NCBI GenBank assembly: GCA_015067825.1
Contig: SVLQ01000006.1
Location: forward strand, 1 to 64,000
From: Oscillospiraceae bacterium
GTDB lineage: Bacteria; Bacillota; Clostridia; Oscillospirales; QAMX01
DNA: 64,000 bases
Reading direction: 5' to 3'
Shown here in pieces: positions 5,354 through 57,247 of this stretch. Every line of letters starts with the position of its first letter. Within the stretch, counting starts at the first letter, position 1. Below the pieces are notes generated by a model. The model saw only the letters and a program-made list of their open reading frames with translations. It was not told where the DNA came from and did not search any database. The position numbers were made by a program, and so were the translations under genes.

Positions 5354-5393
5354 TAAAAAACGCGGCAAGGCGTCTGCCTTGCCGCGTTTTTTT
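5354..5393 (+). terminator. Terminator of the symporter gene
   Basis: A 12-bp GC-rich stem (ACGCGGCAAGGC with GCCTTGCCGCGT) with preceding A residues and a following run of seven T. Confidence 0.9.
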
Positions 5394-8396: not shown

Positions 8397-8446
8397 GGAA
8401 TTGAAATTCGGAATCCTCGGCACTACTGATTGCATTATTAAGGATA

Positions 8447-8492
8447 ACACACGCCAAACGCGTTGTCAATGCGTTTGGCGTGTGTTTGTTTT
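8447..8492 (+). terminator. Terminator downstream of DUF1643
   Basis: A perfect 15-bp stem (8447-8461 with 8471-8485, ACACACGCCAAACGC and its complement), then TTGTTTT. Confidence 0.85.
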
Positions 8493-18347: not shown

Positions 18348-18388
18348 AAAAAGCGATACGCAGCAATCCCGCTGCGTATCGCTTTTCA
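18348..18388 (+). terminator. Terminator of the GH116 gene
   Basis: A long stem AAAAGCGATACGCAGC with GCTGCGTATCGCTTTT. Confidence 0.85.
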
Positions 18389-18527: not shown

Positions 18528-20144
18528 ATGCCCATTCTGTCCATCCAATGCGACCTCTGCTCCGGTGAACTGCAGATGCTGCCGCACGGTCTCGGCGCAC
18601 GTTGTGCCGACTGCGGCATGGAGCACTCGTTTGCGCGCCTGCAGGAAAAGCTGGAGCAGGAAAAAGCGATCGCCGACAGTTTCACCGGCCGCGGCGATCC
18701 GCCGTCGGCACCCCACATTTGGCCGACCGAACCGCCCAAAACCGGTTTGGGCTGCGACCTCTGCTTCGGCGAGATCAAAATCTGCGAAGGCGGGAAGGGG
18801 CGCTGCGCGCTCTGCGGTGTGACCTACACGTTGGAGGATCTGCGCGCCAAGATGCAGGCCAAAAAGAGCGGTGTCCAGCCGGTAAAACCGGTTGTTGAAC
18901 CGCCGAAACCCATCGTTGAACCGGTAAAACCCATCGTTGAACCGGTAAAACCCGTGGTCGAACCGGTAAAACCCGTGGTCGAACCGGTAAAACCCGTGGT
19001 CGAACCGGTAAAGCCCGTGGTCGAGCCGGTAAAACCCGTGGTCGAGCCGGTAAAACCTGTCGTTGAGCCGGAATCCGTTGTTGAACCGCCTCTGCCGAAG
19101 AATCCGCCGTTTTGGATGCCGGTTGACAGCGTGTTTCCGATTTCCGGCGTCGGCGTCGTTGTTTCGGGTAAAATCATCGGCTCGATCTGCAGCGGTAACT
19201 TTGTGCAGACGGCGAACGGAAAACTGTGCGAGGTAAAGGCTGTTGAAGTCGACAAAAAGGTCTGCCAAACCGCGCAGACCGGCGAAACGGTCGGACTGTT
19301 GCTGGCGGGCGTCGACTGCACGCTGGACGGCACCGATTTCCAAATCGGCGACAAACTCATTGCGTCGGACGTTCAGCCGCCGAAGGATGAAGAAATTTTC
19401 GACGTTGAATTCACCCAGATCGACGCAGACGACTACACGGATGCGGAGTACACCGAGGTCGAATACACGGAAGTCGAGTATACGGAAGTGGAATCCACGG
19501 ATGCGGAGTACACCGAAGTGGAATACGTCGAGGTTGAACCCACCGAAGTGCAGAAGCCGTCGGTTGTCCCGGAGGGCTACAAACAGTTCCGCATGCAGGT
19601 CAACTCGACAGCCCACGGCAAGCTGAAAGGCACCGTGCTCGCCGGCACAATCGCGCCCAACGCCAACGTTTTCCTCAACGATACCACGCAGAAGGCGCGC
19701 GTGCTCACCTGCGTTCCGGCCGATCCCAAGGTCGGTCAGACCGTCACGCTGACACTTTCCTACTACTCCAAAGAACCCATCAAGCGCACCATCAAAACGA
19801 TCACCGGTATGCCCCAAACGAATGCGGCGGCCAACGATCTCTACGAATACGGCGGCACGGAAGAGCAGTATTTTGAAGAGCTTTTGCGCCGGAATTTCGC
19901 CGATTACGCGATCAGCAAAGGTCCGCAGGATCCCAACTGGAAGCAGACCTGTTCGTGGCTGCTCTCCAAGAACGGCAAGCCCGCTCTTTTGGTGATTGCA
20001 AGCACCAAACGTGAAGATCCGTTTGCCGGTGAAATTCGCAGCGAGATTTACGCCTACAAGGGCTATCGCAGTGTTCGCTTCTTCATGGAATTCCGCAACA
20101 AGGTCGACTTCGTGGTCAGCCGCATCCGCCAAGCTCTGGCCTGA
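18528..20144 (+). CDS. Double zinc-ribbon protein with repeat linkers and EF-Tu domain II-like barrels
   Basis: A 538-residue protein of unknown function. Two four-cysteine ribbons start it (CDLC..CADC, residues 8-29, and CDLC..CALC, about 76-97). Nine heptads of PVKPVVE type follow (about 118-181). Then comes a segment patterned on domain II of translational GTPases (about 192-280: VFPISGVGVVVSGKI, then VGLLLAGVD and GDKLIAS), an acidic EYTEVE repeat (about 302-340), a second weaker barrel-like segment, and a C-terminal domain I do not recognise (about 430-538). No GTPase domain, signal peptide or membrane helix is present. The start follows AGGAGG. It is immediately upstream of a structured RNA segment and a reverse transcriptase, with no terminator of its own between. 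Confidence 0.75.
   Translation: MPILSIQCDLCSGELQMLPHGLGARCADCGMEHSFARLQEKLEQEKAIADSFTGRGDPPSAPHIWPTEPPKTGLGCDLCFGEIKICEGGKGRCALCGVTYTLEDLRAKMQAKKSGVQPVKPVVEPPKPIVEPVKPIVEPVKPVVEPVKPVVEPVKPVVEPVKPVVEPVKPVVEPVKPVVEPESVVEPPLPKNPPFWMPVDSVFPISGVGVVVSGKIIGSICSGNFVQTANGKLCEVKAVEVDKKVCQTAQTGETVGLLLAGVDCTLDGTDFQIGDKLIASDVQPPKDEEIFDVEFTQIDADDYTDAEYTEVEYTEVEYTEVESTDAEYTEVEYVEVEPTEVQKPSVVPEGYKQFRMQVNSTAHGKLKGTVLAGTIAPNANVFLNDTTQKARVLTCVPADPKVGQTVTLTLSYYSKEPIKRTIKTITGMPQTNAAANDLYEYGGTEEQYFEELLRRNFADYAISKGPQDPNWKQTCSWLLSKNGKPALLVIASTKREDPFAGEIRSEIYAYKGYRSVRFFMEFRNKVDFVVSRIRQALA
18879..19070 (+). repeat. Nine-copy 21-bp in-frame tandem repeat
   Basis: Units such as CCGGTAAAACCCGTGGTCGA encode PVKPVVE-type heptads. 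Copies 4-6 are identical at the DNA level, pointing to recent expansion by slippage or recombination. The reading frame is kept throughout. Confidence 0.9.
19434..19541 (+). repeat. Acidic EYTEVE-coding degenerate repeat
   Basis: 12- to 15-base units of the GAGTACACCGAGGTC type, encoding repeated EYTEVE/ESTDAEYTEVE. More diverged than the 21-bp array in the same gene. Confidence 0.75.
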
Positions 20145-20163
20145 TCGGCCCATCTCAAATTGC

Positions 20164-20304
20164 AAAAAACAGAGGGAAACGCATTGCGCCTGTGAGGGGC
20201 CCAGCACAGACCTTTTTCCGACTTTGCAGGCAGTCGGTTTGTGTACGGTCCGGTAACGCCATACGATGCGTATGGCGCTTTAACGCATTTTCCCTCTGTT
20301 TTTT
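20164..20304 (+). ncRNA. Structured non-coding segment directly upstream of the RT (retron-like ncRNA candidate)
   Basis: A perfect 16-bp stem, AAAAAACAGAGGGAAA (20164-20179) with TTTCCCTCTGTTTTTT (20289-20304), closes a ~109-base interior. Three further hairpins lie inside: CTGTG/CACAG (20190-20209), CCGACT/AGTCGG (20218-20237), and a 9-bp CGCCATACG/CGTATGGCG with an ATG triloop (20257-20277). The segment ends 19 bases before the RT start codon. Long outer repeats around an msr/msd-like core beside an RT gene are the layout of retron ncRNAs. The alternative is a very large terminator or leader. Confidence 0.55.
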
Positions 20305-20323
20305 CTTTTTTCAGGAGAACGCT

Positions 20324-21538
20324 ATGGTACTTCTCTCTCAGCTCTTAAATCCGGATTGCTGGCAGGCACTTTTGGCGCACAAAAGCGAACACGGCCATCT
20401 GCCGCAGAGCGAACAAGCCGCGATGGAAACCTTCCTCGCCGACGAGGCCTACCGCCCGATCGTGGAATCGATGATGGCCGGCGAGGTGTTTCCGCCGCCG
20501 AGGAAGAGCGCGATCGGCAAAAAGGGATCGGAGAAAAAGCGTATTGTCTACATCTATCCGCCCGACTATAACCGCGTTTTGAAGCTGTTGGGCTTTTTGC
20601 TGCAGCGCCGCTACGACCATCTCTTCGCCGACAATCTCTATTCGTTCCGCTCTGCCCACGGTGTGCGTGAGGCGGTTCGAACGCTGACCTACAGCAAAAA
20701 CATCGGGAAAATGTGGGCATACAAAGTCGACATCAGCAACTATTTCAACTCCGTGCCCATAGAACGGTTGCTGCCAATACTCTCTGCGGCTCTGGCCGAT
20801 GCACCCGAAACCTGCCGATTCCTCACCGCACTGCTGACCAGCCGCACCGTGCTGGAAAAAGGCAGCCTCATCGAAGAGGACAAAGGGATCATGGCCGGTA
20901 CGCCGATCTCGCCGTTTTTGGCCAACCTCTACCTCGCCGATCTCGACCGCAAATTTGCCGATGCCGGTGTGCGCTACGCGCGCTATTCCGACGACATCAT
21001 CCTCTTTGCCGATTCCGCCGAAGCGTTGGAGCACCACATCGCCGCGCTGCGGGCGCATTTGGCCGAAGCCGGGCTTGCGATCAATCCGGACAAGGAGGAG
21101 TACAGCGCACCGGGCGAACCTTGGACATATCTCGGCATTTGCTACACGCACGGTGTGATCGACGTTTCGCCGGTTTCGGTGGAGAAGCTGAAGGCCAAAA
21201 TGCGCCGTAAGCGCCGCGCCCTCGCACGGTGGCAGGCCAAAAAGAATGTCACCGGCGTGCAGGCAGCCAAGGCGTTTGTGCGGGCATTTCACAGAAAGCT
21301 GTTTGAAAATCCGGTCGTCAACGATCTGACGTGGACGCACTGGTACTTCCCGCTGATCAACACCGCCGATTCGCTGCGCATCATCGACCACTACGCCCAA
21401 AGCTGCATCCGCACGCTCGCAACCGGCCGCAACACCAAATCTGCCTACAACTTCCGCTACGAAGATATCAAAGCCCTCGGCTACGAAAGCCTGGTTCACC
21501 ATTTCTACGCATACTGCGAAGAGCGTTCCGAACAGTGA
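20324..21538 (+). CDS. Stand-alone reverse transcriptase of unassigned class
   Basis: A 404-residue protein with the main RT motifs: KVDISNYF around Asp136, GTPISPFLANLYL (192-204), and the catalytic box YSDD (221-224) in RYSDDIILFA, followed by GLAINPDKE and the thumb-side WTYLGICY. There is no maturase, endonuclease or integrase domain, and no group II intron RNA is recognised around it. The retron NAxxH motif is not seen and the SQ signature of diversity-generating RTs is absent, so it belongs to a group II-like or unknown RT clade. The ATG at 20324 follows AGGAG. A hairpin-rich non-coding segment lies directly upstream and a zinc-ribbon protein before that. Confidence 0.85.
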   Translation: MVLLSQLLNPDCWQALLAHKSEHGHLPQSEQAAMETFLADEAYRPIVESMMAGEVFPPPRKSAIGKKGSEKKRIVYIYPPDYNRVLKLLGFLLQRRYDHLFADNLYSFRSAHGVREAVRTLTYSKNIGKMWAYKVDISNYFNSVPIERLLPILSAALADAPETCRFLTALLTSRTVLEKGSLIEEDKGIMAGTPISPFLANLYLADLDRKFADAGVRYARYSDDIILFADSAEALEHHIAALRAHLAEAGLAINPDKEEYSAPGEPWTYLGICYTHGVIDVSPVSVEKLKAKMRRKRRALARWQAKKNVTGVQAAKAFVRAFHRKLFENPVVNDLTWTHWYFPLINTADSLRIIDHYAQSCIRTLATGRNTKSAYNFRYEDIKALGYESLVHHFYAYCEERSEQ

Positions 21539-35220: not shown

Positions 35221-35231
35221 TCCACCAACAA

Positions 35232-35271
35232 AAAAACCGATGCAGTTTTAAAAAACTGCATCGGTTTTTTT
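35232..35271. terminator. Bidirectional terminator between DUF4340 and purine nucleoside phosphorylase
   Basis: AAAAACCGATGCAGTTTT pairs with its complement and is flanked by A and T runs on both sides, serving the two convergent genes. Confidence 0.9.
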
Positions 35272-37788: not shown

Positions 37789-38358
37789 ATGGATATTTCC
37801 TCCCTCTTTTCGTTCCTTTCGGTGGCCGAACGCTTAAAGTGCAACACGCGCCACTGCGATACAACGAGCGGCCGCCGCGAAAGCGTGGCTGAGCACTGCT
37901 GGCGGCTCGCGCTGATGGCTTGGCTCGTGCGCGATGAATTCCCCACGGTCGATATCGACCGCGTGATCTTGATGTGCCTGACGCACGATCTGGGCGAGGC
38001 GATCACCGGGGACATCCCCACCTTTGAGAAGACCAAGGCCGACGAACAGACCGAAGGCGAGGCCGTGCGTGCGCTCTTTGCCACACTGCCCGCGCCGAAC
38101 GGCACCGAGCTATGTGCGATCTTCGACGAGATCGACGCGCAGCAGACGGACGAAGCGCGGCTTTTCCGCGCACTCGATAAGTTCGAAGCGGTCATGCAGC
38201 ACAACGAGAGCGATATCGCCTCGTGGCTGCCTTTGGAGTACGATCTGCAGCTCGCTTACGGCGAGCGCGAGGCCGATGCTTTCCCCTACACCCGTGCACT
38301 CAAAGACGCGTTGAACGCGTGGACGCGCAAAAAAATCGAAAACGCCAAGAATCCATAA
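37789..38358 (+). CDS. HD-domain phosphohydrolase (YfbR-like)
   Basis: A 189-residue HD-domain protein of the 5'-deoxynucleotidase/HDDC2 type. The ligands appear as SVAEHCWRLALMAW near residues 31-44, LTHDLGEAITGDIP near 63-76 (the HD pair), and a downstream Asp in RALDKFEAVMQH. Members remove phosphate from deoxynucleoside monophosphates. It is translated right after the sialidase-like gene (6-base gap), so they are cotranscribed; a functional link is not obvious. Confidence 0.85.
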   Translation: MDISSLFSFLSVAERLKCNTRHCDTTSGRRESVAEHCWRLALMAWLVRDEFPTVDIDRVILMCLTHDLGEAITGDIPTFEKTKADEQTEGEAVRALFATLPAPNGTELCAIFDEIDAQQTDEARLFRALDKFEAVMQHNESDIASWLPLEYDLQLAYGEREADAFPYTRALKDALNAWTRKKIENAKNP

Positions 38359-38402
38359 AAAGAGCCTGAAGCTCCGTTTTCCGGATGCTTCAGGCTCTTT
38401 TT
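38357..38402. terminator. Bidirectional terminator
   Basis: AAAAGAGCCTGAAGC with GCTTCAGGCTCTTTTT between convergent HD and phosphodiesterase genes. Confidence 0.88.
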
Positions 38403-48970: not shown

Positions 48971-49007
48971 AAAAACAGACCTGTGAAGATTCACAGGTCT
49001 GTTTTTT
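48971..49007 (+). terminator. Terminator of the ribokinase gene
   Basis: AAAACAGACCTGTGAA with TTCACAGGTCTGTTTTTT. Confidence 0.92.
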
Positions 49008-52484: not shown

Positions 52485-52638
52485 CAGCATGGGTGATATT
52501 GTGCAGCCCTGCGATTCTGCCCTGCGCAACGGCGACCCGCGAACCATGTCAGGCGGGGAACCGAGCAGCATTAAGTGGGATTCGCAGTGTGCCGCAGCCA
52601 GCAGGTTACAGGGCTGCACAATGTCTCTCGTGCTTTTT
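52485..52638 (+). ncRNA. ffs: Signal recognition particle RNA
   Basis: Ends pair perfectly over 14 bp (ATTGTGCAGCCCTG with CAGGGCTGCACAAT). The apical domain IV carries the conserved GTCAGG..GAGCAGCA with a GGAA tetraloop closed by CGG/CCG (about 52548-52570). It has a consensus promoter and a terminal T-run (52633-52637). The position directly upstream of dnaX is the classic Gram-positive order. It binds Ffh to target membrane proteins. Confidence 0.93.
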
Positions 52639-57208: not shown

Positions 57209-57247
57209 AAAAAAATCAGCCGTTGGCAAAGCCAACGGCTGATTTTC
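57209..57247. terminator. Bidirectional terminator between GH92 and rubrerythrin
   Basis: AAAATCAGCCGTTGGC-AAA-GCCAACGGCTGATTTT. Confidence 0.9.

What the first reader, a model, noticed from the sequence alone, without database searches (positions are those of the whole stretch)
20164..20304. Perfect 16-bp inverted repeat enclosing three hairpins next to the RT
The outer arms match at all 16 positions over a ~109-base interior, far beyond chance. A normal terminator has a loop of a few bases. The helix count and sizes suit a small structured RNA, and the last hairpin (9 bp, triloop) would suit a short msd.
Basis: seen in the sequence. Interest (0 to 1): 0.7.

Follow-up and report, generated by a model that had tools for sequence, protein, structure and literature searches.

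The report
RNA partner of UG26 reverse transcriptase
The inverted repeat closes a small folded RNA of an already catalogued but unexplained kind, which sits between a nuclease-like protein gene and a reverse transcriptase gene and is probably the RNA that this enzyme binds and copies.

Summary
The 16/16 inverted repeat (20164-20179 / 20289-20304) is real. It is the only one of eight perfect repeats of 16 bp or more in the window with a long interior, and 10 shuffled windows gave none. The interior is RT-5 RNA, Rfam RF03026 (81 bits). The gene that follows is a UG26 reverse transcriptase (PADLOC, 530 bits), not a retron. In 75 of 80 UG26 loci a model of this RNA lies directly upstream of the RT. 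The arms change as complements (14 of 15 main pairs with double changes). Rfam's model leaves the outer stem, a small second hairpin and a pseudoknot unmodelled; covariation supports all three. Just upstream, in 69 of 75 loci, lies a companion gene with a restriction-endonuclease-like fold. In 394 genomes of the order, all 11 with the RNA also match the companion; 1 of 383 others does. Best reading: a three-part module in which the RT binds this RNA and copies part of it. What is copied, and why, is not shown. A telomerase-like template is possible but weakly supported.

The parts
18529..20144 (+). companion gene (real start probably ATG 18529; the open frame listed begins TTG 18417). Its C-terminal domain matches RTasCOG2852 / profile A7; the N-terminal part (zinc-ribbon-like, repeats, EF-Tu domain-2-like) is particular to this copy
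   Evidence: E 1.3e-4; E 2.3e-6; E 4.4e-8, the only match in the genome
20164..20179 (+). P1 5' arm (outer stem)
20180..20188 (+). P2, small hairpin CGC-AUU-GCG; longer and compensated in some relatives (e.g. ACAGC..GCUGU in L102)
20189..20194 (+). pseudoknot strand 1 (CCUGUG), pairs with 20225-20230
20197..20251 (+). P3: 20197-20201/20247-20251, 20204-20211/20237-20244, tip 20220-20223/20232-20235
20225..20230 (+). pseudoknot strand 2 (UGCAGG) in the P3 loop
20257..20277 (+). P4, 9 bp with AUG triloop; variable in relatives
20278..20288 (+). J4/1, unpaired CUUUAACGCAU; UUUAA conserved; candidate template segment
   Evidence: UUUAA in 88 of 101 elements
20289..20304 (+). P1 3' arm, ending in a U tract
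20184..20291 (+). match to Rfam RF03026, RT-5 RNA
   Evidence: 81 bits, model 1-104 of 104
20324..21538 (+). UG26 reverse transcriptase, 404 aa, YSDD active site

Best explanation
The inverted repeat is the closing stem (P1) of the RT-5 non-coding RNA, the RNA component of a three-part UG26 reverse-transcriptase module: companion protein, RNA, RT. Shown by comparison: the RNA folds into P1, a small hairpin P2, a pseudoknotted P3 and a variable hairpin P4, and it stays next to this RT and this companion. Inferred: the RT binds the folded RNA and reverse-transcribes an internal unpaired stretch of it (most likely the conserved UUUAA-containing joint between P4 and P1), as the characterised defence RTs DRT2, DRT9 and DRT10 do with their ncRNAs. 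The companion, which has a nuclease-like but apparently non-canonical fold, would then act on or respond to that DNA or RNA. Also inferred: the biological role is anti-phage defence, from the RT family alone.
For: RF03026 match, 81 bits. RT_UG26 match, 530 bits. Own model R1 finds the RNA directly upstream of the RT in 75 of 80 UG26 loci and finds it in 26 of 26 RF03026 loci. Covariation: 93.9% of cells paired, 34 of 48 pairs with double changes, 206 such cells against 58 +/- 7 in shuffles, and only 46-48% paired when slid by one column. P1 in a set chosen by the core motif alone: 56 of 62 have a helix of 12 bp or more, and 60 of 62 pair better with their own partner than with others' on average. 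The pseudoknot is 6/6 paired in 87 of 88 elements parsed (of 101), with compensated variants such as GCCCGC/GCGGGC and ACCUGU/GCAGGU. Companion within 140 nt upstream in 69 of 75 loci. Genome-level co-occurrence 11 of 11 against 1 of 383. The companion's typical form matches RTasCOG2852 at 5e-84. RT model pLDDT 92.5, with DRT9 and DRT2 RTs among its structural matches.
Against: No transcript, cDNA or defence assay exists here. Of 20 neighbouring proteins from 5 of the 80 loci, two have weak hits to defence models and 18 none. No close UG26 relative turned up among phages or plasmids or in viral contigs (one hit at 28% identity). The nearest solved structures of the RT are group II intron RTs, ahead of DRT9. 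The window's companion is divergent, and its match to the companion family is modest.
Confidence: 0.72

Rival explanations
1. A retron ncRNA: P1 is the a1/a2 stem, P2-P3 the msr and P4 the msd.
For: Same gross plan: closing inverted repeat, hairpins, RT just downstream.
Against: The RT is UG26; retron models score far below cut-off. NAxxH in 0 of 44 and VTG in 2 of 44 RTs. P4 is short and variable. A conserved pseudoknot is not a retron hallmark as I recall them.
Confidence: 0.06
2. A cis-regulatory leader or attenuator of the RT gene (structured 5' UTR, P1 acting with the U tract as a terminator) rather than a trans-acting RNA partner.
For: The RNA ends in a U tract 19 nt before the RT start codon. 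No sigma-70-like promoter was found at 19900-20420.
Against: P1 has a 109-nt interior. The conserved core with pseudoknot is retained in 75 of 80 loci although the distance to the RT varies. Fixed association with one RT clade and one companion fits an RNA-protein machine better.
Confidence: 0.15
3. An RNA with a structural role only (scaffold or inhibitor that holds the RT inactive), not copied.
For: Most of the conservation is in paired or pseudoknotted positions.
Against: The characterised relatives DRT2, DRT9 and DRT10 copy their RNAs (PMC12632851, sections 8-10 read), and UUUAA in the unpaired J4/1 is conserved.
Confidence: 0.12

Closest known systems
RT-5 RNA, Rfam RF03026
   Same: full-length match, same core (P3 and P4), same place before an RT
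   Different: Rfam's model has open flanks: no outer stem P1, no P2, and no pseudoknot marked in its structure line. These are added here with covariation support.
UG26 reverse transcriptases with RTasCOG2852 (PADLOC 'DRT' models)
   Same: RT 530 bits; companion family 5e-84 in typical copies; both adjacent to the RNA
   Different: No function or RNA partner found in print for UG26 in the searches made; the window's companion carries unusual N-terminal domains
DRT10 (UG17) with its ncRNA and SLATT protein
   Same: three parts: RT, ncRNA, partner protein; candidate template placed just after a stable hairpin
   Different: different RT group, different partner fold (nuclease-like, not SLATT), different RNA; no cDNA data
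DRT9 (UG28) and DRT2 (UG2)
   Same: RT with a dedicated structured ncRNA; RT fold similar
   Different: no poly-U template loop and no evidence of a rolling-circle gene
retrons
   Same: closing inverted repeat and RT-adjacent RNA
   Different: RT lacks retron motifs; no msd-like region

Membership tests
RT-5 RNA (RF03026) | covariance model score above gathering cut-off (45.7 bits) | tested here: met
   81 bits, positions 1-104 of 104
RT-5 RNA (RF03026) | lies next to a reverse transcriptase gene | tested here: met
   19 nt before the RT start codon; 75 of 80 relatives
UG26 RT (DRT/UG family) | full-length match to the group's profile, well above other groups | tested here: met
   530 bits over 1-398; next RT model 121.6 bits, next UG group (UG27) 104.5
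UG26 RT (DRT/UG family) | catalytic RT motif YxDD | tested here: met
   YSDD in 44 of 44
UG26 RT (DRT/UG family) | anti-phage activity | not testable with these tools
   needs phage assays
retron | retron RT motifs NAxxH and VTG (recalled) | tested here: not met
   0 of 44 and 2 of 44
retron | inverted repeats a1/a2 enclosing the RNA | tested here: met
   P1
retron | msDNA with branched RNA-DNA link | not testable with these tools
   needs cDNA analysis
telomerase-like / DRT10-like repeat template | A-B-A' repeat in the unpaired template segment, co-varying between systems | tested here: inconclusive
   own-pair match exceeds shuffles and five control segments do not inside clades, but an unbiased scan shows 110 of 834 window pairs at z>2.5, so the signal does not stand out
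PD-(D/E)XK nuclease fold (companion) | alpha-beta-beta-beta-alpha-beta core matching solved members | tested here: inconclusive
   Z 6.8-4.3 to TIP26, I-Bth0305I, EcoT38I, Bax1, BstEII, AbaSI, with unrelated folds at similar lower Z; Foldseek best E 0.034; all on the L115 homologue
PD-(D/E)XK nuclease fold (companion) | conserved catalytic D and (D/E)xK | tested here: inconclusive
   read by eye from the alignment: a near-invariant E in 'VVEL', but no conserved acidic residue on the preceding strand and no K after it; the window copy lacks the E
intrinsic terminator | G+C-rich stem with a loop of a few bases before a U run | tested here: not met
   interior 109 nt; scan lists no terminator at the P1 arms

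The most novel reading that the evidence does not exclude
RT-5 is a minimal bacterial analogue of telomerase RNA. Hairpin P4 sets the 5' template boundary, the joint UUUAACGCA (20279-20287) is the template, the following UUU (20288-20290) is the realignment site, and the pseudoknot holds the RNA in the RT. The UG26 RT would then make tandem 9-nt repeats (TGCGTTAAA here, other units of about 7-10 nt in relatives), which control the nuclease-fold companion.
Probability: 0.18. Interest if true: 0.85.

Novelty: new member of a known kind. Interest (0 to 1): 0.45.

Why it matters
RT-5 has stood in Rfam as an RNA without a function, and UG26 as an RT group without an RNA in the papers searched. Linking RNA, RT and companion, and giving the RNA a full fold with outer stem and pseudoknot, turns both into one testable machine. 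If its RT copies the P4-P1 joint repeatedly, it would be a further RT system that works like telomerase, with a new kind of partner protein.

Tried and rejected
Direct repeat AACGCATT (20178-20185 and 20282-20289), first taken as a hint of DRT2-like template jumping: the two copies differ in most relatives (by eye), so it was dropped.

A-B-A' template in J4/1. Longest shared stretch between A and A' is 3.55 nt against 3.26 +/- 0.09 in shuffles over 69 distinct pairs. It persists with shuffles inside RT clades (0-8 of 1000 reach it), and five other segments tested the same way show nothing inside clades. But A and A' were defined after looking at the sequences, and an unbiased scan of 834 window pairs has 110 with z above 2.5, the template pair reaching only 3.2 and the top being 5.7 in the G+C-rich core. 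I therefore treat it as undecided. The single position before the U runs matches in 34 of 69 pairs against 26.5 +/- 3.7 (157 of 5000 shuffles reach it).

Defence-island test: 20 neighbouring proteins chosen from 5 of the 80 loci; two have weak PADLOC hits, 18 none. Not supportive.

Phage, plasmid and viral-contig searches gave only remote RTs and no RNA core match.

Companion fold search with Foldseek alone was weak; only the second look listed many restriction-endonuclease folds. The 45 sequences behind one search were chosen for a P1 helix of at least 12 bp, so P1's percentage paired there is biased; one search repeats P1 without that choice, but on sequences found by a core pattern that missed 42 of 107 sources. 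The companion profile was built from 58 of the upstream ORFs it then finds.

The primary papers on RT-5 and on the UG groups are not held; what I say of them is recalled.

Full report
Observation. Of the eight perfect repeats of at least 16 bp in the window (gap up to 150) it alone has a long interior; ten shuffled windows had none. The stretch folds far better than shuffles (z -4.5).

Identity of the RNA. The interior matches Rfam RF03026, RT-5 RNA, over the whole model (81 bits). Apart from the SRP RNA at 52513-52611 it is the only Rfam match in the window at gathering score, and it is the only RT-5 in the 2.7 Mb genome. Rfam's structure line covers the central helix and the last hairpin and leaves both flanks open.

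Identity of the RT. The ORF at 20324-21538 (404 aa from the ATG at 20324) scores 530 bits with PADLOC's RT_UG26; the next RT models score about 122 or less. The genome holds no other RVT_1 match. AlphaFold2 gives a confident model (mean pLDDT 92.5). Its best solved matches are group II intron RTs, then a G2L4 RT, then DRT9.

Relatives. A scan of genome contigs with an RT alignment kept 80 loci, from Clostridia by their record titles, most of them gut or rumen. My covariance model, built from 45 elements, finds the RNA directly upstream of the RT in 75 of 80; L068, L091, L111, L114 and L125 have no match, and L091's contig begins 121 nt before the RT. It also finds all 26 loci brought in by RF03026. 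RF03026 occurs in 11 of 394 genomes drawn from the order, 15 of 391 from the class and 2 of 398 from the phylum, the own genome being in each count.

Fold. On 45 sequences 93.9% of cells form standard pairs. 34 of 48 pairs show changes on both sides, and 206 cells do, against 58 +/- 7 in shuffles. Sliding the partners by one column drops pairing to 46-48%. P1 carries double changes at 14 of its 15 main pairs. Because those 45 were chosen with a P1 of 12 bp or more, I repeated P1 on 62 elements chosen by the core alone: 56 have 12 bp or more, and 60 pair better with their own partner than with others' on average. The loop of P3 pairs back to the stretch just after P2: 87 of 88 elements parsed have 6 of 6 pairs, with several compensated variants; 13 of 101 elements could not be parsed by the pattern. 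P4 varies in sequence and length with pairing kept in 85% of cells. The joint between P4 and P1 holds UUUAA in 88 of 101 elements and a near variant in 12.

Companion. The ORF ending 19 nt before the RNA (stop codon ends at 20144) has a C-terminal domain found, by a profile made from its relatives, within 140 nt upstream of the RNA in 69 of 75 loci; none is found in L132, L100, L064, L097, L137 and L059. Typical copies match PADLOC's RTasCOG2852 at 5e-84 to 8e-61, divergent ones weakly. In the order, 11 of 11 genomes with the RNA also match the companion profile, G142 only weakly and 583 nt away; of the 383 without the RNA, one (G251) has a match, inside a 1232-aa frame. A model of the L115 copy (C-terminal part pLDDT above 90) resembles restriction-endonuclease folds at Z 5-6.8, including TIP26, which I recall to be catalytically inactive. 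Its catalytic residues look incomplete by eye.

Mechanism. Shown: one RNA fold, one RT group and one companion travel together. Inferred: the RT binds the RNA and copies part of it, as DRT2, DRT9 and DRT10 do (PMC12632851, sections 8, 9 and 10 read; PMC12483538, passages only). The most likely copied part is the unpaired joint between P4 and P1. In this genome that joint reads CUUUAACGCAU and runs into UUU of P1, which has the A-B-A' form that DRT10 uses for repeat addition. Statistical support for A/A' co-variation is modest and did not stand out in an unbiased scan, and part of A' would have to leave the P1 helix. Defence is inferred from the RT family only; 20 neighbours from 5 loci gave no clear defence genes.

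Known or new. RNA family, RT group and companion model each exist in databases. No paper held in the library was found to link them: searches for RT-5 RNA with reverse transcriptase, for UG26 with reverse transcriptase or DRT, for COG2852 with reverse transcriptase and for RF03026 gave nothing relevant (one search lists three papers, judged by title and abstract start only, one of which, PMC10504277 on cold-seep viruses, holds the term UG26 twice and was not read). The library lacks the two primary papers, so a link may already be in print there.

Noticed in passing
18529-20144: The window's companion has unusual N-terminal parts for its family: two zinc-ribbon-like segments, a PVKPVVE repeat run, an EF-Tu domain-2-like stretch and an acidic YTEVE repeat, fused to the C-terminal companion domain.
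   Followed up: partly
L029 and L003 (G092 contig C10, 14023 and 69348): One genome carries two RT-5/UG26 pairs about 55 kb apart on one contig, with clearly different RTs and RNAs.
   Followed up: no
L067:6722-7510: A second companion-domain ORF lies downstream of the RT in this locus, besides the usual one upstream.
   Followed up: no
5355-5392, 8446-8486, 18349-18386, 35230-35271, 38357-38402, 48971-49006, 57212-57246: Seven other perfect inverted repeats of 16-20 bp with loops of 2-14 nt, terminator-like in form.
   Followed up: no
52513-52611: Bacterial small SRP RNA (RF00169, 70.5 bits).
   Followed up: no
L068, L111, L114, L125: UG26 RT loci with upstream sequence held but no RNA match to model R1; the RNA may be lost, diverged or elsewhere.
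   Followed up: no
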